A DNA stretch of 20,257 nucleotides from a virus, in the IMG/VR virus record IMGVR_UViG_3300030099_002365, positions 5,771 through 26,027 of that record; one strand, 5' to 3'. The position numbers and the translations under genes were made by a program. Shown in pieces: positions 2,764-13,573 of the stretch. Every line of letters starts with the position of its first letter. Position 1 is the stretch's first letter. The notes beneath the pieces were generated by a model, which was given only the letters and a program-made list of their open reading frames with translations, made no database searches and was not told the origin of the DNA.

Positions 2764-3690
2764 ATGCCACTTATAGGAAGCTTCGGATCAGCTGCTGCTC
2801 AAGGTTTTGGCCAAAGAGTAGGAGGTAAAAATTTAATTCCTTTTGGTTATTTAATTATTGCTGGCGGAGGAACTGGTGGAGCTAACTACGGCGGTGGCGG
2901 TGGCGGCGGAGGAATGAGAGAATTCTCAATCCCCCAAGGTCAACAAGAAGTCGAAACAGGAACTTACACAATTACAGTTGGAGCAGGAGGCTCAGGATCT
3001 GCAGGCCCTCCAGGAGACGCTGCTGATGGAAATGATTCGTCAGTATTTACAGGTTCATCATTTGCAGTTGCTTCCACAGGAGGTGGAGGTGGCGGAGCAC
3101 AAGGTGGTCCATCTGATAAAACTCTCGGAAGACCAGGAGGAGCTGGAGGTGGCGGAGGCCCTGGAGCTTACACACCTAACCCTGGAGCTGGAGGATCAGG
3201 AAATGCTGGAGGCTACAGTCCCCCTGAAGGAGCAAATGGTGGTACAACACCTGCCAACCTAGATGCACCTTCTTACGGAGCTGGAGGTGGCGGAGGCGGA
3301 GGAAACTCTGGATCTTTAGGTAACTACGCTAACACAGGAGGTCCTGGAGGTCCTGGAACTTCAACTACATTTATTTCACCAAGTGCACAAACATTCTCAG
3401 GTGGAGGTGGTGGAGGATATGGAAATTCAGGCGGAGGATCGTCTGGAGGATCAGGCGGTGGAGCACCATCGGGATCCGCAGCTTCGGCAAATACCGGAGG
3501 AGGTGGCGGAGGCGGAGGCCCTGTCCAAGGAGTTACAAGACACAACGGTGGTTCTGGAAGAGTTCATTTAAGATGTCCTACTGATTTAGTACCACTTGTT
3601 ACAGTAAGTCCTGAGGGTTCAATAACAACTTCTCAAGATGGAAGTGCAATAATTACTTTTTTATCTACTGGTACTTTAACCATCGAATAA
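2764..3690 (+). CDS. Glycine-rich adhesin-like tail protein
   Basis: A 308-residue protein starting at ATG 2764 behind a strong AGGAGG at 2749-2754. Residues 1-35 are ordinary (MPLIGSFGSAAAQGFGQRVG, then FGYLIIAGGG). Residues 33-265 are dominated by glycine in runs of up to eight, interspersed with Ser, Pro, Ala and Asn. Residues 270-308 form a compact beta tail (PLVTVSPEGSITTS to TLTIE). Glycine-rich proteins of this layout occur in phage tail tips; the gp38 adhesin of Salmonella phage S16 folds its glycine-rich part as packed polyglycine II helices, which is a plausible model here. Residues 81-84 read GPPG, a collagen-like triplet context, and GGPGGPG occurs at 192-198. GGN codons make the gene locally GC-rich and create meaningless open frames in other phases. 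Receptor binding is inferred. Confidence 0.87.
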   Translation: MPLIGSFGSAAAQGFGQRVGGKNLIPFGYLIIAGGGTGGANYGGGGGGGGMREFSIPQGQQEVETGTYTITVGAGGSGSAGPPGDAADGNDSSVFTGSSFAVASTGGGGGGAQGGPSDKTLGRPGGAGGGGGPGAYTPNPGAGGSGNAGGYSPPEGANGGTTPANLDAPSYGAGGGGGGGNSGSLGNYANTGGPGGPGTSTTFISPSAQTFSGGGGGGYGNSGGGSSGGSGGGAPSGSAASANTGGGGGGGGPVQGVTRHNGGSGRVHLRCPTDLVPLVTVSPEGSITTSQDGSAIITFLSTGTLTIE

Positions 3691-3733: not shown

Positions 3734-4276
3734 ATGAAAGACATTGTAGTCAAACCAAGTATATGCTTTGAGAAGAAAATACAAAAACATATATTTTATT
3801 ATGAATCTATCTTGAAAAATGTTAACACTAAACATTTTATAAAAGGTATTGATGCAGGAATTAATTTAGATAATAACATGAACTATAGAACAAATGTTCA
3901 TGGAAAGATGACTTCTTGGACATATTTTAATAAAAATGAACATTTAAATGATATTCTATCAAAATGTTTAGATGTGTTTGATTTAGATTTTAAATTACCA
4001 TCTTCTTTTTTAGCTGAATCTTGGGGGATAAAAATGAATAAAAATGCTTTTACAAAAGAGCATGATCACGCAGCCTGTTCTATGTCAGGTGTGCTTTACC
4101 TTAACACTTTAAAAAATTGTTTTTTAGAGTTTCCTGAATTAAACTATAAAACAGAAATAATAAAAAATAAAATTATTTTATTTAGTAGTTCCTTGCTACA
4201 CAAAACAAAAAGAATATCAAGCAATTACCCGAAATATGCAGTGGCTTTTAATTTTAAAAGAAAAAGGGATTGGTAA
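3734..4276 (+). CDS. 2OG-Fe(II) oxygenase-like protein 1 (HxH type)
   Basis: A 180-residue protein if started at ATG 3734; an in-frame GTG at 3728 would add two residues. Neither has a clear ribosome site. The C-terminal half fits the small 2-oxoglutarate/Fe(II) oxygenase fold: FLAESWGIKMNKNAFTKEHD, then a short strand SGVLYLN, then KIILFSSSLLHKTKR and KYAVAFNF. Candidate ligands are His110 and His112 (HDH) with distal His156. The position usually held by the 2-oxoglutarate-binding Arg is Lys167. The layout is that of the family I know as 2OG-FeII_Oxy_5, frequent in marine phages, but the match is divergent. The distal part, glycine-poor compared with its relatives, could mean altered activity. 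First gene of an eight-gene cassette; its stop overlaps the next start (TAATG). The substrate is unknown. Confidence 0.78.
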   Translation: MKDIVVKPSICFEKKIQKHIFYYESILKNVNTKHFIKGIDAGINLDNNMNYRTNVHGKMTSWTYFNKNEHLNDILSKCLDVFDLDFKLPSSFLAESWGIKMNKNAFTKEHDHAACSMSGVLYLNTLKNCFLEFPELNYKTEIIKNKIILFSSSLLHKTKRISSNYPKYAVAFNFKRKRDW

Positions 4277-4971
4277 TGACAAAAATAGGATGGGTACCAT
4301 TTAAAAAAAGTTATTCAGATCCATATCATTTATTAGATTTTTTAGATTTAGTAATAGAAGAACCAAAGAAATTATCTGGGTTTTATAAAAACACAAAATC
4401 TTCTTTCATTAAATGTCCTGCTAATGCTGCTTTCTTAAAAAATTTATTTGTAGTTAGATCACCATTTGATTTAGAAATAAAATATTTTAGAGATCAAAGA
4501 AGAATTTGGGTAAGTCAAAAACAACTTTTTGTTGAACATATGGTTTTGCCTAGATTTGGTGATTACACTCCAGCTGATAAAGCATTATGTAGTCTGTTAA
4601 TTTCTTATATGTTTTTTGCAGACAAACCAGTTTGGATAGAAATTTATCCTCCTTTTTTACATGGAGAAGTTAAAAACACTAGATTAATAAGTGGGACTTT
4701 TGATATTTATAATTGGCATAGACCTGTAGATTTTAGTTTTGAAATATTAGATGACACAAAACCTATAAAAATAAAAGAAGGTCAACCTTTGTATTATATT
4801 AAATTTATAAGTAATAAACTTAATGATGATTTTGAATTACAAAGATTAGAATGGAATGACGAATTAAATAAAGCACACAATAGGTGTAGACCACAAAGTT
4901 ATTTAGTTAATATGGCTTGGAGAATAATGAAATTAGGAAATAAACTTAGACCAAAAAAATTTATAAAATAA
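4276..4971 (+). CDS. Unrecognised protein inside the oxygenase cassette
   Basis: A 231-residue protein starting at ATG 4276, whose A is the last base of the preceding stop (TAATG). A TTG six bases upstream is less likely. It does not show the His-x-Asp/His ... His ... Arg pattern of its neighbours. Visible features are PVWIEIYPPFLH (residues 118-129), SGTFDIYNWHRPVDFSFEI (139-157) and IKEGQPLYYIKF (167-178), which suggest a beta-sandwich, followed by a basic helical C-terminus (QSYLVNMAWRIMKLGNKLRP). I recall similar PPFLH and GTFDIxxWxRP proteins of unknown function in cyanophages, without an assigned activity. There are no transmembrane segments. Embedded between oxygenases and translationally coupled on both sides, it may supply substrate binding or another step of the same modification. 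This is inference from position only. Confidence 0.85.
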   Translation: MTKIGWVPFKKSYSDPYHLLDFLDLVIEEPKKLSGFYKNTKSSFIKCPANAAFLKNLFVVRSPFDLEIKYFRDQRRIWVSQKQLFVEHMVLPRFGDYTPADKALCSLLISYMFFADKPVWIEIYPPFLHGEVKNTRLISGTFDIYNWHRPVDFSFEILDDTKPIKIKEGQPLYYIKFISNKLNDDFELQRLEWNDELNKAHNRCRPQSYLVNMAWRIMKLGNKLRPKKFIK

Positions 4972-5606
4972 TGCTAGATTACATAAAAGGAACTCATAAA
5001 AACGCTGGTATTGAATATAAAAATTATAAAGATATCTTAATTACACCATTATTTAATGAGTCTTTTTGTAAAGAACTTTGTAAGATTGGAGATAGATTTA
5101 AAAATAAATTTGATTATTGGCATCAAGGAAATGCAAAAAGAAGTAAAGATTCTACTTTATATTTTAACATATTAAAGTTTAGATATTTTGCAGGTCAAAA
5201 GTTTTTTGAAGATTTTACACTTCATTATGCACGCACTATTTTACCAATGATTAAAAAAGAATGGTTAGGAACTCAAATAGTAGGTTGGTTTGATCCATTT
5301 ATTGTAAGGTACGATGGAAACAAAAAGGAAGAACTTACAATGCATAATGATGTAAGTCATATTACAATGGTAGTAAAATTAAACGATACTTTTGAGGGAG
5401 GTATTTTAAAATTACCTAGACAAAATTTTAATAATAAAAAAATACCAGTAGGCCATGCATTAATATGGCCTAGTCAAGTTACACATCCTCATCTTGTAAC
5501 ACCTGTAACAAAAGGTGTTAAATACTCAATGACAAGTTGGACTTGGCCTGTATTTTGGAATCAAGATGGAATTATTTTTAATAATGATATACATGATAAA
5601 AAATGA
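4971..5606 (+). CDS. 2OG-Fe(II) oxygenase 2 (prolyl/lysyl hydroxylase-like)
   Basis: A 211-residue protein starting at ATG 4971 in a TAATG overlap with the preceding gene. The C-terminal catalytic core is clear: FIVRYDGN (residues 110-117), His125-Asn-Asp127 in MHNDVSH, then FEGGILKLP (141-149), the strand GHALIWPSQ and the distal histidine in THPHLVTPVTKGVKYSMTSW. Aligning H-x-V-x-P-V-x2-G-x-R of the family puts the distal ligand at His174 and the 2-oxoglutarate anchor at Lys184 instead of Arg; collagen prolyl 4-hydroxylases also use Lys. All three iron ligands are present, so it is probably active. Family members hydroxylate protein side chains such as proline or lysine using O2 and 2-oxoglutarate. 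The substrate here is unknown. The next gene overlaps it by four bases (ATGA). Confidence 0.87.
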   Translation: MLDYIKGTHKNAGIEYKNYKDILITPLFNESFCKELCKIGDRFKNKFDYWHQGNAKRSKDSTLYFNILKFRYFAGQKFFEDFTLHYARTILPMIKKEWLGTQIVGWFDPFIVRYDGNKKEELTMHNDVSHITMVVKLNDTFEGGILKLPRQNFNNKKIPVGHALIWPSQVTHPHLVTPVTKGVKYSMTSWTWPVFWNQDGIIFNNDIHDKK

Positions 5607-6211
5607 ATTTAAAAAATAAATATTATTATTGGCAAAAAGAACTGTCACCAAAAATTTGTGACGATATTATAAAACTAGGATTATCAAAAGATAAAAAAAA
5701 GGGAACTATATTTAACCCTAAAATAAAAGGTTACAGATTAAAAAAATTAAGAGATTCAAATGTAGTTTTTTTGGACGAGCATTGGTTGTTTAAATTAATT
5801 TTTCATTATGTAAAAACAGCTAACGAAATGGCAGGTTGGAATTTTGATATTGACTATACTGAAAATATGCAATTTACTATTTATAATAAAAATCAACACT
5901 ATGGTTGGCATTGTGACTCCAGTGAAATCCCTTATGATTGTCCACATGATATTAAAAAACATGGAAAGATAAGAAAACTTTCTGTTACAGTTTCCTTAAC
6001 AGATCCAAAAGAATTTAAAGGTGGCGATTTTGAATTTGATTTTAGAACTTATAACGATATTAAAAAAACAAAATTTTTTAAACCTAAAGAAATAAAACCC
6101 AAAGGAAGTATTTTAGTATTTCCTTCTCATACATGGCATAGAGTTTTACCTGTTACAACTGGTACAAGATACTCTTTAGTTGCTTGGGTTTGTGGTAAAC
6201 CTTTTAAATAA
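5603..6211 (+). CDS. 2OG-Fe(II) oxygenase 3 (PKHD/PiuC-like hydroxylase)
   Basis: A 202-residue protein starting at ATG 5603 (ATGA overlap with the preceding stop). It is the most canonical oxygenase of the cassette. After an N-terminal part beginning YYYWQKELSPKICDDIIK, the core reads FTIYNKNQHYGWHCD with His103 and Asp105, then RKLSVTVSLTD (residues 124-134), GGDFEF (140-145), GSILVFPSHTWHRVLPVTTG with His179, and TRYSLVAW with Arg189. The His-x-Asp ... His-x10-Arg pattern and the ending CGKPFK closely match the PKHD hydroxylase group that includes PiuC/YbiX (about 225 residues). All catalytic residues are intact, so activity with iron, O2 and 2-oxoglutarate is expected. No ribosome site precedes it; translation is probably coupled to the upstream gene. 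Substrate unknown. Confidence 0.92.
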   Translation: MNLKNKYYYWQKELSPKICDDIIKLGLSKDKKKGTIFNPKIKGYRLKKLRDSNVVFLDEHWLFKLIFHYVKTANEMAGWNFDIDYTENMQFTIYNKNQHYGWHCDSSEIPYDCPHDIKKHGKIRKLSVTVSLTDPKEFKGGDFEFDFRTYNDIKKTKFFKPKEIKPKGSILVFPSHTWHRVLPVTTGTRYSLVAWVCGKPFK

Positions 6212-6212
6212 T

Positions 6213-6779
6213 ATGAATTATTCTGTTTTTCCAACATTGATAACAGAAATAGAAAACTTCATTACAGATGATGAATTAAAAAAAATAAAGAATGTAATAA
6301 ATAAAAATAAAAACTTATTACAAAAACACGAAACTTTTGGTGACAATGCAAAATCTACACATCAAGATGACAGTCGTTTTTTAGATTCTATACCATTTAT
6401 TAAACCTAAAATATCAAATGTTGTTGCAGAATACACAGATGTTTGTGGTTTTCAAACTGATCACGAATTAACCAATTCATGGTTTAACATACAAAAGAAA
6501 GATAGTATTTTAGATAAGCACACACATCCAGGAGCAATTATTTCTGGAGCCTTATTTATAAGGGCTGATTCAAAAAGTAGTAAATTATTTTTTCATAATC
6601 CTAATCCGATGATTTATTTTACATCAATGAAAAAGCGCAATATGTATAATTATGAATGGATTTATTTTAATCCCAAACCAAAAACTTTAATATTGTTTCC
6701 AGCTTGGTTGCAGCATGGAGCAAATGGTACATTAAATAAAAGTAAAGATAGGACTGTAGTTTCTTTTAACTATTCATAA
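6213..6779 (+). CDS. 2OG-Fe(II) oxygenase-like protein 4 (2OG-FeII_Oxy_5 type)
   Basis: A 188-residue protein. ATG 6213, two bases after the preceding stop, is preferred to an upstream TTG (6180) because the protein then begins MNYSVFPTLITEIENFI, the usual start of this family. Core: SWFNIQKKDSILDKHTHPGA (residues 89-108) with His103 and His105, then SGALFI, KLFFHNPNP (124-132), a bridge rich in aromatic residues, and PKTLILFPAWLQHGANGT with His168, followed by DRTVVSFNY with Arg180. This is the standard layout of the 2OG-FeII_Oxy_5 group found in many marine phages and bacteria, where HxHP occupies the place of the usual HxD. Function of the family is largely unknown. It is the best-preserved HxH-type member here, and sits between two other oxygenase-like genes with a single-base gap downstream. 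Confidence 0.9.
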   Translation: MNYSVFPTLITEIENFITDDELKKIKNVINKNKNLLQKHETFGDNAKSTHQDDSRFLDSIPFIKPKISNVVAEYTDVCGFQTDHELTNSWFNIQKKDSILDKHTHPGAIISGALFIRADSKSSKLFFHNPNPMIYFTSMKKRNMYNYEWIYFNPKPKTLILFPAWLQHGANGTLNKSKDRTVVSFNYS

Positions 6780-6780
6780 T

Positions 6781-7299
6781 ATGATAATAAATATAGATAA
6801 TGATTTGTTTATAAGAGAGCATAATATTCTGAATAAATCTGACATCATTAAAATTAAAAAAGATTGTGACCATGAATTAAAAATTAATTTGTGTAAAAAT
6901 GTACCTCTATATCAAACACATAGTAATTTAGTTCCTAGAAATATTTCAAAAATTCATTGGAAAAAATTATATGATAAAGTCTTTTTATGTATTAAAATGA
7001 CTCAATGTTGGGAAAGCAATAAAAAAATAAAATTAGTTGAATCATGGGTCAACAAATCATTATCAAATAATAATTTTAAATTTCATAATCACCCTAACGA
7101 TCTTACTTGTGTATATATATTAAAAAATAAATATCCTGAATATGGAACTAAACTAAGTAATGATATTATAATCGAAGCTAAAGAAAACTCTTTACTTATA
7201 TTCAATGGTAAAATAACACATAGTATAACTAATATGCCTAAAATATTAGCTAATAAAAACCCAAGGTATTCTATAGTAATGGATTTTAATTATGAGTAA
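6781..7299 (+). CDS. 2OG-Fe(II) oxygenase-like protein 5 (divergent HxH type)
   Basis: A 172-residue protein starting at ATG 6781, one base after the preceding stop and without a ribosome site. The second half resembles a reduced version of the preceding gene: VESWVNKSLSNNNFKFHNHP (residues 86-105) with His102 and His104, a strand CVYILKN, then NSLLIFNGKITHSITNMP with His147, and PRYSIVMDFNY with Arg162. The segment between the histidine pair and the distal histidine is short. The spacing from distal His to Arg is 15 residues instead of the usual 10-12. The Lys/Asn/Ile-rich composition is extreme, reflecting very AT-rich DNA. It is probably an oxygenase-fold protein related to its neighbour by old duplication or by recruitment of the same family; whether it is catalytically active is uncertain. 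Confidence 0.8.
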   Translation: MIINIDNDLFIREHNILNKSDIIKIKKDCDHELKINLCKNVPLYQTHSNLVPRNISKIHWKKLYDKVFLCIKMTQCWESNKKIKLVESWVNKSLSNNNFKFHNHPNDLTCVYILKNKYPEYGTKLSNDIIIEAKENSLLIFNGKITHSITNMPKILANKNPRYSIVMDFNYE

Positions 7300-7804
7300 T
7301 TTAAAAGTTTTTGATAATTTTTTAAAAAAAGAAGATTTTGAAAAAATTTTTTATACAATGAGTGGAGATAATTTTCCATGGTATTATAATGATTATGTTA
7401 ATGATAAAAATGATAATAGGGATTTTTTTCAATTTATACATGGCTTTTATGATAAAGTAATAAATTCAGATTTTTTTCCTCTCGTAGAACCTTTGCTGCG
7501 TAAACTTGAAGTAACTGCCATAGCTAGAATAAAAGCTAATTTACTTTTAAAAACAGATAGACCAGTGGTTCATAATTACCATACAGATTATGATTGGAAA
7601 TATAAGTGGTGGACAGCTATTTACTATGTTAATTGCAATAATGGCAGAACCATCTTTCAAAAAGATAAAAAAAGTGTATATTGTGAGGCAAACAGATTAG
7701 TGTTATTTGATGGAAGATTACCTCATTGTAGTGTAACTTCAACAGATACAAAAAAAAGAATAGTAATAAATTTGAATTTTTTTAATAAAGAACTGGAGGA
7801 TTGA
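7292..7804 (+). CDS. 2OG-Fe(II) oxygenase-like protein 6 (HTD type)
   Basis: A 170-residue protein starting at ATG 7292, overlapping the preceding gene by eight bases. It matches a cyanophage/pelagiphage oxygenase type I recall: DNFPWYYND (residues 26-34), HGFYDKV, then TAIARIKANLLLKT (75-88), His97-Thr-Asp99 in NYHTDY, WTAIYYVNCNNGRTIF (107-122), the strand NRLVLFDGRLPH with His145, and TDTKKRIVINLNF with Arg156. The His-x-Asp, distal His and Arg (+11) are all present, so this member is likely active. Its short length and strongly conserved aromatic/NNG segment distinguish it from the PKHD-like gene upstream. Its stop overlaps the following start (TGATG). Substrate unknown. Confidence 0.87.
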   Translation: MSNLKVFDNFLKKEDFEKIFYTMSGDNFPWYYNDYVNDKNDNRDFFQFIHGFYDKVINSDFFPLVEPLLRKLEVTAIARIKANLLLKTDRPVVHNYHTDYDWKYKWWTAIYYVNCNNGRTIFQKDKKSVYCEANRLVLFDGRLPHCSVTSTDTKKRIVINLNFFNKELED

Positions 7805-8454
7805 TGTCATTTAAAAAAAATAAATATATGGTTGTAAAAAATGTTCTTGATAAAAAATTGTGTAAATTTCTTTTTGATTATTTTGTAAATAAAAGATTTG
7901 TTACTTATACTTTAATGAATGAAAAGTATATTAACCAAAGTGAAAATATGCATGGATATTGGGATGATCCACAAGCACCAGGCACATACTCGATATACTC
8001 TGATATTGCTTTTGAAACTCTACTACAAGACTTAAAACCTCAAATAGAAAAAGCTACTAAATTAAAATTAGTTTCAACATATTCTTATGCAAGGCTTTAT
8101 AAAAAGGGAGATGTATTAAGGAGACATGTAGACAGAAATGAATGTAAAGTTTCTGCAACTTTAAATTTAGGGGGAGATCCTTGGCCTATCTATGTGGACT
8201 CAAAAGGTAAAGGCATCAATACTGAGATTGGATATAGACCACTTGGAAATAAAGGTATTAAATTTGATTTGAAACCAGGTGATATTTTATTATACTCAGG
8301 ATGTGAATTAGAACATTGGAGAAATGAATTTAAGGGTAATGATTGTGCTCAAGTCTTCCTACATTATAATGAAAAGAAAGGTAAAAATACCAATAAATTT
8401 GACGGTAGACCCATGCTAGGTTTGCCTGATTATTTTAGAAAAAATAACGTATAG
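7804..8454 (+). CDS. 2OG-Fe(II) oxygenase-like protein 7
   Basis: A 216-residue protein. ATG 7804 overlaps the TGA of the preceding gene and is preceded by GGAGG at 7795-7799, the only clear Shine-Dalgarno site inside the cassette; a TTG at 7801 is less likely. N-terminal MVVKNVLDKKLCKFLFDYF is typical of oxygenase N-termini. The core has YSYARLYKKGDVLRRHVDRN with His108 and Asp110, SATLNLGGDPWPIYV (residues 117-131), a KPGDILLYSG strand (157-166) and CELEHWRNEFKGNDCAQVFL with His171. The Arg normally found about ten residues after the distal His is absent at that position (Cys181), so 2-oxoglutarate may be held differently, for example by Arg173, as I recall for this phage subgroup (HWR...QVFLHY). 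Last gene of the cassette. Substrate unknown. Confidence 0.87.
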   Translation: MSFKKNKYMVVKNVLDKKLCKFLFDYFVNKRFVTYTLMNEKYINQSENMHGYWDDPQAPGTYSIYSDIAFETLLQDLKPQIEKATKLKLVSTYSYARLYKKGDVLRRHVDRNECKVSATLNLGGDPWPIYVDSKGKGINTEIGYRPLGNKGIKFDLKPGDILLYSGCELEHWRNEFKGNDCAQVFLHYNEKKGKNTNKFDGRPMLGLPDYFRKNNV

Positions 8455-8512: not shown

Positions 8513-9067
8513 ATGGCACATTTCGCAAGAATCAAACAACAAGCTAACCCATTTACAAATGAGCTTGAGTGGACAGTACAGGAAGTAATTGTAGCAAGTA
8601 ACGATATACAAACTGCTAGCGGTCCTTTAGGTGATAATGACATGCATGAAGATGGTGAAGCTTATGTAAAAAATATGTTTAAGCATATGTATCCAGAAAA
8701 CGAAAATAATTGGAAACAAACATCTTACAATAATAATTTTAGAAATATATTTGCTGGGAGAGGCTGTGTATATTTAGAAACCGCAGACAGATTTATTGGT
8801 GCACAACCTTTTGCATCTTGGCATTTAAATAATCAAGATGAATGGACAGCTCCTATAGCAACACCTACAGTAGAAACCTACCCAAATCCAAACGCAGGAC
8901 AAGAGGGTGAGCCTGAAACATTAAGATACTTAATGCATTGGGATGAAAATGCTTATGAGGCTGATAACACTAAGGGTTGGAAAGCTATGGATGAAAGTTC
9001 TTCTGTTAATAGAAATACTTATGAGTGGGATGCAACTAACCTACAATGGGTTGCTATCGCTGAATAA
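8513..9067 (+). CDS. Conserved phage protein of the MAHFA type, probably virion-associated
   Basis: A 184-residue protein starting at ATG 8513 behind AGGAG at 8503-8507. The start MAHFARI, the central WKQTSYNNNFRNIFAGRG (residues 67-84), the segment DRFIGAQPFASWHLN (92-106) and the closing WDATNLQWV recall a small protein widely found in marine myo- and podoviruses (MAHFAKV ... WKQTSYN ... PQPFPSW), of unproven function. It is rich in Trp, Asn and acidic residues, with no transmembrane segment. Here the region before WKQTSYN and the region after SWHLN are longer than in the versions I remember. It follows a good promoter candidate and precedes a large structural protein. A structural or fibre-accessory role is inferred from genomic context only. 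Confidence 0.85.
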   Translation: MAHFARIKQQANPFTNELEWTVQEVIVASNDIQTASGPLGDNDMHEDGEAYVKNMFKHMYPENENNWKQTSYNNNFRNIFAGRGCVYLETADRFIGAQPFASWHLNNQDEWTAPIATPTVETYPNPNAGQEGEPETLRYLMHWDENAYEADNTKGWKAMDESSSVNRNTYEWDATNLQWVAIAE

Positions 9068-9108
9068 TAGTCACAATCTCTAATCTTTATTACTTCGAGT
9101 CATTGGTG

Positions 9109-9114
9109 TATAAT
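9109..9114 (+). promoter_or_regulatory. TATAAT box positioned for a leaderless transcript
   Basis: A perfect TATAAT lies in the 53-base gap before the gene at 9121. Seven bases downstream of its last base is the A of the ATG, so transcription would begin at or next to the start codon. No Shine-Dalgarno sequence precedes this ATG. The possible -35 box (TTTATT, 9086-9091, spacer 17) is poor, which limits confidence. Confidence 0.45.
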
Positions 9115-9120
9115 ATTTTT

Positions 9121-11034
9121 ATGCCATTAACAAAAGTACAATTTGCACCAGGATTTAATAAACAAGCATCTGCTTCAGGAGCTGAAAACCAATGGGTAGA
9201 TGGTGATTTCGTTAGATTTAGATACGCAATGCCTGAAAAAATAGGTGGTTGGTCTGAAATTATGGACAAACAATTAATAGGTGCTGCAAGAGCTTCACAT
9301 AGTTGGGCTGATTTAGATGGTAGAAGATATATAGCAATAGGAACAAATAAAATTTTATATATTTATGATGGAGACGACTTTTACGATATTACACCTTTTA
9401 ATGCATCCCTAGCACAATCAGGCTGTAACATTACTACGACTAATGGATCTGATATTGTAACAATAACATGTTCAGGAATCCACAACCTCGAACCAGGTGA
9501 CATCGTAACATTTGAAAATGCAGGTTCATTTAATGCTTCACAAACAGGATATGTTGCAGCAGACTTTGATAACATTTTATTTGAAGTACAGTTAGCACCA
9601 ACGACTACTACTTTTACAATTAAAATGTCTGCTAATGAATCAGGTTCGGGTACCACAAACAACGGAACACTTGATTTAAAAGCATACTATCAAGTAGGGC
9701 CATTACAACAGGCTTTTGGTTTTGGTTGGGGTACAGCTTTATGGGGAGGCTCAACTTGGGGTACACCTAGAACGACTTCAGCTGCAGTGTTAGATCCTGG
9801 AGCATGGTCATTAGATAATTATGGTGAATTATTAATTGCAACTATTAAAAACGGATCAACTTTTTCTTGGAATCCAAACACAGGAGTTGCAACAAGAGCC
9901 ACATTAGTATCAGGAGCACCTACAAAATCTGTTATGAGTTTAGTCTCTGACAGAGATAGACATTTAATTATATTAGGCACTGAAACGACAATCGGTTCCT
10001 CAACCTCACAAGATAAAATGTTTATAAGATTTTCTGATCAAGAAACTTTGACTGATTACACAGCAACTTCTACAAATACTGCAGGTTCATTTAGAATTGA
10101 TAGCGGTACAAAAATTGTTGGTGCAGCTAAAGCTAAAGATTATGTTTTAATTCTTACAGATACTTCTGCATATTTGATGCAATTTGTAGGGCCACCTTTT
10201 ACTTTTAGTATAAGACAAGTTGGATCTAATTGTGGGTGTATGGGACAAAAATCAATTGTTTATGCAAATGGTGCTGTATATTGGATGTCAGACTCAGGTG
10301 GATTTTTTGTATTTGATGGTACCGTAAAAGCTTTACCTTGTTTAGTGGAAGATTTTGTTTTTCAAACAAATGATAATGCACCAGGATTTAATGTTATAAA
10401 TGGTTCAGAACTTACTAGTGCTGGTCACAATGGTCTATACTCTGAAATTACTTGGTTTTATGCAACTAGTAATTCAAATTTTATTGATCGATCGGTCACT
10501 TATAATTATGCTGAACAAACTTGGACAACAGCCTCTTTAGCAAGAACGACATATGAGGACATACATGTATTTGAAGATCCTATAGCAACAGAATTTACAA
10601 ACACTCTTGCTCCTACAACTCCAACAGTTCAAGGAGTATCTAATGGAGCTTCAAGAGTATTTAATCACGAAGTAGGGACTAATGAAGTTTTAGCAAATGG
10701 TACAACTAATGCTATAAACGCATTTATTAAATCAGGAGATTTTGATTTAGACGCCCAAGGGGATGGAGAATTCTTTATAAAGGTTAGAAGATTCATACCT
10801 GACTTTAAGTATATAAATGGAAATGCAAAAATAACTTTAGAGTTAAGAGACTATCCTGCAAATGTCCAACAAGGTTCTCCTTTGGGGCCATTTACAATTA
10901 ACTCAACTACAGATAAAGTAGACACAAGAGCAAGAGCTAGATTAGCTGCTGTAAAAATAGAAAATGATAGCACAAATGAAAGTTGGAGATTTGGTCAATT
11001 CAGATTTGATATACAACCTGATGGTAGAAGATAA
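9121..11034 (+). CDS. Large virion structural protein, possibly tail nozzle/hub
   Basis: A 637-residue protein when started at ATG 9121; an in-frame TTG at 9103 is rejected because it lies upstream of the TATAAT box and adds only VYNIF-like residues. The N-terminus (MPLTKVQFAPGFNKQASASG) and GDFVRFRYAMPEKIGGW (residues 28-44) recall a marine phage structural family. The body alternates beta-strands such as YIAIGTNKILYIYDGDDFYD, suggestive of blade repeats as in beta-propeller nozzle or hub proteins (T7 gp12, P22 gp10). A WG-x3-WG-x3-WG triad occurs at W203/W208/W213, as in the WG-repeat protein near the left edge. The C-terminus (KVRRFIPDFKYINGNAKITL, WRFGQFRFDIQPDGRR) is beta-rich. Its stop overlaps the next start. 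A tail nozzle role is a guess from size and order; a virion role is likely. Confidence 0.87.
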   Translation: MPLTKVQFAPGFNKQASASGAENQWVDGDFVRFRYAMPEKIGGWSEIMDKQLIGAARASHSWADLDGRRYIAIGTNKILYIYDGDDFYDITPFNASLAQSGCNITTTNGSDIVTITCSGIHNLEPGDIVTFENAGSFNASQTGYVAADFDNILFEVQLAPTTTTFTIKMSANESGSGTTNNGTLDLKAYYQVGPLQQAFGFGWGTALWGGSTWGTPRTTSAAVLDPGAWSLDNYGELLIATIKNGSTFSWNPNTGVATRATLVSGAPTKSVMSLVSDRDRHLIILGTETTIGSSTSQDKMFIRFSDQETLTDYTATSTNTAGSFRIDSGTKIVGAAKAKDYVLILTDTSAYLMQFVGPPFTFSIRQVGSNCGCMGQKSIVYANGAVYWMSDSGGFFVFDGTVKALPCLVEDFVFQTNDNAPGFNVINGSELTSAGHNGLYSEITWFYATSNSNFIDRSVTYNYAEQTWTTASLARTTYEDIHVFEDPIATEFTNTLAPTTPTVQGVSNGASRVFNHEVGTNEVLANGTTNAINAFIKSGDFDLDAQGDGEFFIKVRRFIPDFKYINGNAKITLELRDYPANVQQGSPLGPFTINSTTDKVDTRARARLAAVKIENDSTNESWRFGQFRFDIQPDGRR

Positions 11035-11890: not shown

Positions 11891-12834
11891 TGCAACCTGC
11901 AGGTGGAACTGAATTACAATTAGCTTATCTAAAAAAATATGTGAATCAAGGTATGCTTGATTCTGTTCAAATAACTACATCTGTACCAGAAAAAGAACCT
12001 TTAGATCCAATCAAAGCGAATATACTTTGGTTGAAAAATTCTTATGATCAACCTAATCTAGCTCCTTGGTTTCAAAATAAAGAAAACCATTCTAAATATG
12101 ATTGGTATGTTTTTAATAGTCATTGGAGTTATGAAAAATATCGTATGTTTTTTAAAATTCCAGAAGAAAAATGCACCGTTATAAAAAACGGAATAGATTA
12201 TGACGAATTACAATTGAAAACAGATTTTACTCCCAAGAAAAAATTAAAAATGTGTTACATCTCTACGCCATGGCGAGGTTTAGAAGTAGCTTTAACAGCT
12301 ATGGAATCTTTGGTTGATAGAGATCCAGATATTACTTTAGATGTTTACTCAAGCACAATTATTTATGGTAAACAATTTAAGGATCATAATGATAGTCAAT
12401 ATGAAGAACTTTATCAAAAGGCAAAAGATTTACCAAATGTAAATTACATGGGTTACTGTGATCACAAAACTTTAATGAGTAAACTTAAAGAATATGATGT
12501 GAATTGTTTCCCTAGTATTTGGGAAGAAACATTTTGCATATCAGCAATGGAATCATTAGCTTCAGGTCAATTACTCATAACCACAGATCTTGGTGCATTG
12601 TTTGAAACTTGTGCAGAGTTTCCTATTTATATACCCTTTACAAAAAACAAAGCAAAATTAGCACAACAAGTAGCAGAGTGTTGTATAGAAGCAAAAAAAA
12701 TTTTACAAAATGATTTAACTAATGTATTTAGATTTCAACAAGAATATTATAAGAGATTTTATAATTGGCGAAACATTGGTAGAAATTGGGAAGGTTTTTT
12801 AAAAGGAGTAATTCATGTCCAACGAAATAAATAA
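11890..12834 (+). CDS. GT4-like glycosyltransferase
   Basis: A 314-residue protein starting at ATG 11890. The frame is closed by TAA at 11875-11877, so no longer start exists. The start MQPAGGTELQLAYLKKY places the nucleotide-proximal GGTE loop at residues 5-8, so the usual first beta-strand of the N-terminal Rossmann domain is missing or very reduced compared with typical members (350-400 residues). The C-terminal domain is standard: VIKNGIDYDEL (residues 97-107), ISTPWRGLEVAL (124-135), VNYMGYCDH and EETFCISAMESLASGQLLIT, which contains the E-x7-E motif (Glu213, Glu221), followed by TDLGALFET. Members transfer a sugar from a nucleotide sugar with retention. It overlaps the following glycosyltransferase by 20 bases. 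Likely targets are phage structural proteins or host surface glycans; not determinable here. Confidence 0.9.
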   Translation: MQPAGGTELQLAYLKKYVNQGMLDSVQITTSVPEKEPLDPIKANILWLKNSYDQPNLAPWFQNKENHSKYDWYVFNSHWSYEKYRMFFKIPEEKCTVIKNGIDYDELQLKTDFTPKKKLKMCYISTPWRGLEVALTAMESLVDRDPDITLDVYSSTIIYGKQFKDHNDSQYEELYQKAKDLPNVNYMGYCDHKTLMSKLKEYDVNCFPSIWEETFCISAMESLASGQLLITTDLGALFETCAEFPIYIPFTKNKAKLAQQVAECCIEAKKILQNDLTNVFRFQQEYYKRFYNWRNIGRNWEGFLKGVIHVQRNK

Positions 12835-13573
12835 AAATCATTTAATGGTATGCACTCCTGTGCATTCTGAAGTTTCAATACATTATATGAAAGCTTGTTT
12901 AGATTTACAAAAAGAATGTATTTTAAATAAAACAAAAATTACATTTCAACTTATGAAATCTTCTTTAGTTACACAGGGCAGAAATTTATGTGCTTCTGCA
13001 TTTATGAATTCAGATGCTGCTCAAATGTTATTTATAGACTCTGATATTGAATTTAGCACACGCTCAGTTTTTAGACTTTTTAAATCAAATTATGAAGTAT
13101 CTTTAATACCTTACCCAATGAAACAAAAAACAGATGCTAAATTTAGAAAAGATTTTGAAACAAGACCTGATAATAGTATTCATAGTATGGGACATTTATT
13201 TCCAATAGAAATACCAGACACTAACGACATAAGACCACAAGATGGTTTTATTGAAGTGAACAAAGGCCCGACAGGTATGATGATGATAAAAAGGTCAGCA
13301 TTTGATAAGTTAAAAGAGCATTACAAAGAACTTACTATAAGTCAAAAGACATTAGTAAATGGCGAACTTATAGAAAGACCAAATTATTATAATTTTTTTG
13401 ACACTTATTGGAGTCCAAAAAACAAAACTTACATGGGGGAAGACTTTTATTTTTGTAAGTTATGGACATCAATTGGTGGTAAAATTCATGCTTTATGTGA
13501 TGAAGAAATAACCCATATAGGTGAATATAAGTATTCAGGCAAAGTCAAGGACGAATTCTATAAAGTTGACTGA
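12815..13573 (+). CDS. GT-A type glycosyltransferase-like protein
   Basis: A 252-residue protein starting at ATG 12815 behind AAGGAG at 12803-12808, inside the end of the preceding glycosyltransferase gene. N-terminal HLMVCTPVHSEVSIHYMKA (residues 9-27) is a GT-A Rossmann start. SLVTQGRNLCASAFMNSDAA (50-69) is followed by MLFIDSDIEF, whose Asp75-Ser-Asp77 is the DxD metal site that binds the nucleotide sugar. GPTGMMMIKRSAFDKL (151-166), MGEDFYFCKLW with Glu209-Asp210, and ITHIGEY with His234 complete the usual acceptor and metal elements. I recall similar proteins in cyanophages annotated as glycosyltransferases. With the GT4-like partner it may add a two-step glycan. No membrane anchor is visible, so it should act in the host cytoplasm. 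Confidence 0.87.
   Translation: MSNEINKNHLMVCTPVHSEVSIHYMKACLDLQKECILNKTKITFQLMKSSLVTQGRNLCASAFMNSDAAQMLFIDSDIEFSTRSVFRLFKSNYEVSLIPYPMKQKTDAKFRKDFETRPDNSIHSMGHLFPIEIPDTNDIRPQDGFIEVNKGPTGMMMIKRSAFDKLKEHYKELTISQKTLVNGELIERPNYYNFFDTYWSPKNKTYMGEDFYFCKLWTSIGGKIHALCDEEITHIGEYKYSGKVKDEFYKVD

What the first reader, a model, noticed from the sequence alone, without database searches (positions are those of the whole stretch)
3734..8454. Cassette of seven 2OG-Fe(II) oxygenase-like genes plus one unknown inside a phage tail region
Eight consecutive same-strand genes lie between the glycine-rich adhesin and the next structural protein. Seven carry an oxygenase-like histidine/acid pattern with a distal His (and usually Arg or Lys). 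They are not simple recent duplicates: motifs are HDH, HND, HCD, HTHP, HNHP, HTD and HVD, with different lengths and spacings. One or two such genes are common in marine phages; seven in a row suggests a multi-step hydroxylation or oxidation system acting on one class of substrate, or a diversifying toolbox. The tight start-stop coupling implies co-expression in set ratios.
Basis: partly seen in the sequence, partly recalled or inferred. Interest (0 to 1): 0.82.

Follow-up and report, generated by a model that had tools for sequence, protein, structure and literature searches.

The report
Seven oxygenase genes in phage tail

Summary
Window 3734-8454 carries eight tightly coupled genes, and seven belong to the Fe(II)/2-oxoglutarate oxygenase superfamily. 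Four pass Pfam cut-offs. Three are linked by profiles, and a confident model of the eighth gene has the double-stranded beta-helix fold. Metal-ligand residues are invariant in all seven families (HxD...H in four, HxH...H in three). g2 is unrelated to them, perhaps with a dUTPase-like fold.

The cassette is not exceptional. Its order is kept in about 20 related contigs, and other marine phages carry runs of 4 to 10. Clusters of this kind are published (Sullivan 2010; Wittmers 2022).

Best explanation: hydroxylation of the phage's own tail or adhesin proteins. This is inferred, not shown; the window has no collagen-like substrate, and some homologues sit near replication genes in other phages.

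The parts
2764..3690 (+). Gly-rich tail/adhesin-like protein (308 aa, 33% Gly) immediately upstream; candidate substrate
   Evidence: PF21722 Gly_rich_2 2.7e-14; a Gly-rich ORF is also directly upstream of the oxygenase run in about 20 contigs, in HTVC033P and in S-MbCM6
3734..4276 (+). g1: oxygenase, PF13759-type; H110, H112, H156, K167 invariant
   Evidence: PF13759 4e-8, phrog_81 1.1e-13, alignment A8
4276..4971 (+). g2: non-oxygenase, phrog_17480 family; possible dUTPase-like beta fold
   Evidence: phrog_17480 8e-18; AF2 pLDDT 70; Foldseek dUTPases E about 6e-3 and viral homologues 1e-13; distant homologues also lie inside oxygenase clusters L049, L051
4971..5606 (+). g3: procollagen-lysyl-hydroxylase-like oxygenase; H125, D127, H172, K184 invariant
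   Evidence: PF13640 5e-10; PDB profile: mimivirus lysyl hydroxylase 6ax6 5.6e-13 and human LH3 8.7e-13; single sequence LH3 1.7e-9; tree
5603..6211 (+). g4: P4H/PKHD-type oxygenase; H103, D105, H179, R189 invariant
   Evidence: PF13640 1.3e-15; PDB 3dkq 1.2e-9, PiuC 6e-9, P4H 5c5t 6e-7
6213..6779 (+). g5: TIGR02466/PF13759 oxygenase; H103, H105, H168, R180 invariant
   Evidence: PF13759 5e-18, TIGR02466 above cut-off, PDB 3bvc 5.7e-25 and 2rg4 9.7e-24
6781..7299 (+). g6: divergent PF13759-like oxygenase; H102, H104, H147, R162 invariant
   Evidence: phrog_81 1.5e-11; hhalign to the g5 family prob 92, E 5e-7; A9
7292..7804 (+). g7: phrog_274 family oxygenase (named 'DNA endonuclease V' in databases); H97, D99, H145, R156
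   Evidence: phrog_274 2e-49, phrog_81 8.5e-5; PADLOC 2OG 1.3e-5; A5
7804..8454 (+). g8: phrog_2954 family oxygenase (named 'ferrochelatase'); H108, D110, H171 invariant, Q183 where Arg/Lys is expected
   Evidence: A1; AF2 pLDDT 87, pTM 0.85; Foldseek PDB, 613 matches with E<=1e-3, top 4j25 prolyl-4-hydroxylase 2e-8
8513..9067 (+). 'MAHFAR' protein, phrog_7759; constant downstream neighbour in window-type contigs
   Evidence: phrog_7759 7e-22; directly downstream of the run in window-type contigs
9103..11034 (+). virion structural (stabilisation-type) protein; places the phage near HTVC023P/HTVC027P
   Evidence: phrog_3287 5e-86; HTVC023P 54.5% identity
11890..12834 (+). GT4-type glycosyltransferase in the same structural block
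   Evidence: PF00534 1.5e-12
12815..13573 (+). phrog_1574 protein of unknown function; by eye glycosyltransferase-like
   Evidence: phrog_1574 2e-28; no PDB sequence match

Best explanation
This is a conserved cassette, inside the structural gene block and therefore probably late-expressed, of seven anciently diverged Fe(II)/2-oxoglutarate-dependent oxygenases plus one non-oxygenase partner. Most likely they hydroxylate side chains of the phage's own tail or adhesin proteins, such as the Gly-rich protein encoded next door, each enzyme taking a different residue or site. Some hydroxyls may be glycosylated by the glycosyltransferase encoded downstream. Swapping oxygenases in and out would then tune virion stability or receptor binding. 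Shown: homology, fold of g8, conserved metal ligands, purifying selection, conserved gene order. Inferred: catalysis, substrates and purpose.
For: Fold and triads. Conserved position between a Gly-rich tail protein and structural genes in about 20 contigs, and Gly-rich upstream proteins in unrelated phages such as HTVC033P and S-MbCM6. g3 is specifically lysyl-hydroxylase-like, not a generic oxygenase. The closest phage relatives of g3 are C-terminal domains of 589-643-aa proteins with GT25, GT_PLOD and lysyl hydroxylase domains, encoded 0.4-1.6 kb from tail fibres with 55-99 Gly-X-Y triplets in which Lys occurs only at Y (22-26 Lys at Y, 0 at X). Across 24 records, 4/4 complete genomes with the fusion and 0/20 without it have at least 10 Lys-collagen hits (Fisher 9e-5, not phylogenetically independent). 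Precedent: a chlorovirus prolyl 4-hydroxylase and 4-hydroxyproline in viral proteins (Eriksson 1999, cited in PMC9301287).
Against: The window has no collagen-like Gly-X-Y run, so g3 would need another substrate. In cyanophages, homologues of g7 and g8 also lie near clamp-loader, methyltransferase, thymidylate synthase or psbA genes. Three of the four fusion genomes are related Kyanoviridae. g1, g5 and g6 have HxH rather than HxD, and g8 lacks the basic 2OG ligand, so chemistry may differ. No virion mass spectrometry of these residues was found in the papers read.
Confidence: 0.5

Rival explanations
1. Host-protein modification: the oxygenases hydroxylate host targets (translation factors, ribosomal proteins, regulators) to steer the infected cell.
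For: The best structural match of g8 is a bacterial prolyl-4-hydroxylase also solved in complex with EF-Tu (4j25, 4iw3). Some homologues lie outside tail regions.
Against: Placement in the structural block beside Gly-rich or collagen-like tail genes is unexplained; Foldseek also matches many small-molecule enzymes about equally well.
Confidence: 0.14
2. Surface-glycan or small-molecule modification: hydroxylation of host envelope glycans, lipids or metabolites, for example against superinfection.
For: Nearby glycosyltransferase; carbamoyltransferase-like or tryptophan halogenase genes in some clusters; Foldseek matches HygX, SnoN and MysH.
Against: No complete sugar or lipid pathway was recognised in this contig; g3 and g4 resemble protein hydroxylases by sequence.
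Confidence: 0.13
3. Nucleic-acid modification or repair (TET/JBP- or AlkB-like), as proposed for cyanophage oxygenases.
For: Published proposals (PMC2984593; PMC9146016); g8 homologues near replication genes in some cyanophages.
Against: No Tet_JBP or AlkB model matched any of the eight proteins at E<=1; tail-region placement.
Confidence: 0.09
4. Metabolic role: draining or sensing 2-oxoglutarate to alter nitrogen status, or iron/heme metabolism with a 'ferrochelatase' partner.
For: Sullivan 2010 proposal (PMC3037559); Wittmers 2022 partner-AMG idea (PMC9599517).
Against: The partner has an oxygenase fold, not a ferrochelatase, and seven diverged families with separate conserved sites are not needed to consume 2OG.
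Confidence: 0.06

Closest known systems
2OG-Fe(II) oxygenase clusters of HTVC023P-type pelagiphages (Wittmers et al. 2022, PMC9599517)
   Same: Same phage group by the 643-aa structural protein; several non-orthologous oxygenases with an adjacent 'ferrochelatase' in HTVC023P
   Different: The paper describes the genes as nearby but not adjacent and reads the partner as ferrochelatase; here seven are contiguous and the partner itself has an oxygenase fold
Oxygenase-rich tail-fibre regions of T4-like cyanophages (S-SM1, Syn9) and pelagimyophages (Mosig, HTVC008M)
   Same: Homologous families clustered near tail-fibre and neck genes
   Different: Different order and content; some with tryptophan halogenases
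Procollagen lysyl hydroxylases (PLOD/LH3; mimivirus L230) and phage GT25-GT_PLOD-LH fusions (S-CAM9 gp218, CRP-6 gp58)
   Same: g3 matches the lysyl hydroxylase domain along most of its length
   Different: g3 stands alone without glycosyltransferase domains; Lys184 where PLOD has Arg; no collagen-like protein in the window

Membership tests
Fe(II)/2OG oxygenase superfamily | Double-stranded beta-helix fold | tested here: met
   g8 by AF2 and Foldseek; the others only by sequence profiles
Fe(II)/2OG oxygenase superfamily | HxD/E...H metal triad | tested here: inconclusive
   Met and invariant in g3, g4, g7, g8; g1, g5, g6 have invariant HxH...H, as have the solved relatives of g5, 3bvc/2rg4
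Fe(II)/2OG oxygenase superfamily | Basic residue (Arg/Lys) after the distal His for 2OG binding | tested here: inconclusive
   Present in six; in g8 the corresponding residue is invariant Gln183
Fe(II)/2OG oxygenase superfamily | 2OG- and Fe(II)-dependent catalysis | not testable with these tools
   Needs enzyme assays
Procollagen lysyl hydroxylase (PLOD-LH) - g3 | Sequence similarity to LH domains above other oxygenases | tested here: met
   LH3 1.7e-9 against PiuC 0.011 by single sequence; tree separates from g4/PKHD with support 100
Procollagen lysyl hydroxylase (PLOD-LH) - g3 | Associated GT domains and collagen-like substrate | tested here: not met
   g3 is 211 aa; no Gly-X-Y run in the window. 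Met in the phage fusions, not here
Ferrochelatase - g8 | Ferrochelatase sequence or fold | tested here: not met
   No Pfam match; the 50 listed structural matches are dominated by Fe(II)/2OG oxygenases and include no ferrochelatase
DNA endonuclease V (denV) - g7 | Sequence similarity to T4 endonuclease V | tested here: not met
   No such Pfam match; oxygenase profiles match and HxD...H is invariant
TET/JBP or AlkB nucleic-acid oxygenases | Match to Tet_JBP or AlkB-type models | tested here: not met
   None among Pfam hits at E<=1

The most novel reading that the evidence does not exclude
Marine phages carry virion-protein hydroxylation systems encoded beside their tail genes. In some, a phage-encoded analogue of the whole collagen lysine pathway (hydroxylation, then two sugar transfers) decorates collagen-like tail fibres. 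The window's cassette is an expanded version, without fused glycosyltransferases, acting on a Gly-rich adhesin.
Probability: 0.4. Interest if true: 0.85.

Novelty: new variant of a known kind. Interest (0 to 1): 0.62.

Why it matters
Phage 2OG oxygenases are very common in marine phages and have been read as nitrogen, DNA-repair or heme genes. If they hydroxylate tail proteins, a large class of 'auxiliary metabolic genes' is really virion post-translational modification, which can be tested directly by mass spectrometry of existing isolates. The correction of 'ferrochelatase' removes the basis of a published heme/iron interpretation.

Tried and rejected
Seven in a row as a unique feature: rejected, other loci have runs up to 10. 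Recent tandem duplication: rejected, families are deeply diverged and have separate orthologues elsewhere. g8 as ferrochelatase and g7 as endonuclease V: rejected. Direct hhalign of g8 or g7 families against g4 was uninformative (prob 3 and 4), and g8 (A1) and g7 (A5) profiles found no meaningful PDB sequence match, so g8 rests on the structure model and g7 on phage profiles. g2 against g4 gave nothing. A genome-contig scan with the g3 family found no bacterial relative. PADLOC gave only a generic 2OG model. The collagen search in window-type contigs was negative. HTVC027P transcriptome: the passages read do not state the timing class of its oxygenase gp73.
Full report
WHAT IS THERE. The window lies in a 26,027-base IMG/VR virus record. 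Its 643-aa structural protein is 53-55% identical to those of pelagiphages HTVC023P and HTVC027P, so a SAR11 host is likely (inference). Eight + strand genes fill 3734-8454. They overlap by 1-8 nt or are 1 nt apart; flanking gaps are 43 and 58 nt. GC is 26% against 36% for the flanks, and the same contrast is seen in relatives. dN/dS against up to four relatives is 0.06-0.53 for every gene, so all are under purifying selection, g1 least.

ARE THEY OXYGENASES. g1, g3, g4 and g5 exceed Pfam thresholds. g5 also exceeds TIGR02466 and matches solved structures 3bvc and 2rg4. g6 is joined to the g5 family (hhalign prob 92) and to phrog_81. g7 belongs to phrog_274, named endonuclease V, but also matches 2OG profiles. 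g8 belongs to phrog_2954, named ferrochelatase. Its AF2 model (pLDDT 87, pTM 0.85) matches 613 PDB chains at E<=1e-3, led by Pseudomonas putida prolyl-4-hydroxylase, MysH, SnoN and HygX; no ferrochelatase is among the 50 listed. Iterated profiles from the other oxygenases recover most of the seven and never g2, and reversed sequences give no hit. These iterations ran on a small database rich in oxygenases, so their E-values are optimistic.

ACTIVE SITES. Within each family the ligand residues are invariant: HxD...H in g3, g4, g7, g8, and HxH...H in g1, g5, g6. A basic residue follows the distal His in six; g8 has invariant Gln183. The HxH group and g8 may therefore differ in metal or cosubstrate chemistry. 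The g6 alignment holds only three close sequences, so invariance there says little.

g2. Profile comparison with g4 shows no relation to the oxygenases. The model is only moderately confident (pLDDT 70). It resembles dUTPases weakly (E about 6e-3) and uncharacterised phage proteins more strongly (1e-13). Distant homologues lie inside other oxygenase clusters (L049, L051), but also elsewhere in S-H38, S-T4 and CRP-6, so the link is partial.

CONSERVATION AND FREQUENCY. In window-type contigs the order Gly-rich protein, g1, g2, (extra oxygenase), g3, g4, (g5), (g6), g7, g8, MAHFAR protein is kept, with g5 sometimes one gene further down. Among non-duplicate loci, longest runs were 6 in fifteen, 7 in three and 10 in one. 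These loci were fetched because they hold relatives, so the counts are not a survey. Clusters are published for T4-like cyanophages (PMC3037559; PMC9146016) and for HTVC023P-type pelagiphages with an adjacent 'ferrochelatase' (PMC9599517).

THE LYSYL HYDROXYLASE LEAD. The g3 family matches procollagen lysyl hydroxylases of mimivirus and human at 1e-12 to 1e-13. g3 alone matches LH3 at 1.7e-9, against 0.011 for the next family. A tree puts g3, phage fusion proteins and PLOD on one side of a branch with support 100 and g4/PKHD on the other. The fusion proteins, found by searching phages with g3, have GT25, GT_PLOD and lysyl hydroxylase domains. Each of the four complete genomes with the fusion has a tail-fibre gene 0.4-1.6 kb away with 55-99 Gly-X-Y triplets, Lys only at Y. 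A whole-record pattern scan gave 21-24 hits in those four and 0, 1 or 2 hits in 20 other phages (Fisher 9e-5). Three of the four are related cyanophages and CRP-6 infects a roseobacter, so there are at most about two independent cases. The controls were chosen from oxygenase-bearing phages, not at random. A fifth, fragmentary record (8.4 kb) has the fusion without a fibre in view. No paper in the held library combined cyanophage and procollagen; most subscription papers are not held.

MECHANISM. From these facts the most likely function is hydroxylation of the phage's own tail or adhesin proteins, with probability about one half. The window supplies a Gly-rich neighbour and a glycosyltransferase but no collagen-like protein, so the substrate of g3 here is unknown. 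Homologues of g7 and g8 near replication or photosystem genes in other phages argue that not every member is tied to tails.

VERDICT. The rarity claim is wrong. The substrate idea is partly supported by evidence outside the window. The cassette is a new variant of a known kind; the most interesting outcome is the collagen-pathway-like fusion next to collagen-like fibres, which makes the tail-modification hypothesis testable.

Noticed in passing
L089:6612-8453 (S-CAM9 gp218), L088:4735-6504 (CRP-6 gp58), L090:9001-10845, L091:9001-10866, L092:1835-3766: Phage proteins with GT25, GT_PLOD and lysyl hydroxylase domains beside collagen-like tail fibres with Lys only at Y in all four complete genomes; annotated hypothetical or 2OG oxygenase.
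   Followed up: partly
window 7804-8454; phrog_2954 and phrog_3531: Database name 'ferrochelatase' for this family is contradicted by an oxygenase-fold model and HxD...H; L024 has this domain fused to a second PF13640 oxygenase domain.
   Followed up: yes
window 7292-7804; phrog_274: Database name 'DNA endonuclease V' is attached to an oxygenase-like family common in cyanophages (257 phage records with a match).
   Followed up: partly
L023:6703-8658: Tryptophan halogenase domain fused to a C-terminal g8-type oxygenase domain; halogenases also adjoin oxygenase clusters in Syn9 and S-RIM44.
   Followed up: no
window 4276-4971; L049:8183-8965; L051:3711-4469: g2 family, possibly dUTPase-like fold without known function, recurs inside unrelated oxygenase clusters.
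   Followed up: partly
window 8513-9067; L021:295-822: 'MAHFA' protein (phrog_7759 in the window) is a constant neighbour of the cassette; function unknown. The L021 protein is grouped with it by eye only.
   Followed up: no
window 3734-4276, 6213-6779, 6781-7299: HxH instead of HxD at the metal site in the PF13759-type members, also in solved 3bvc/2rg4: a possible non-canonical metal site.
   Followed up: no
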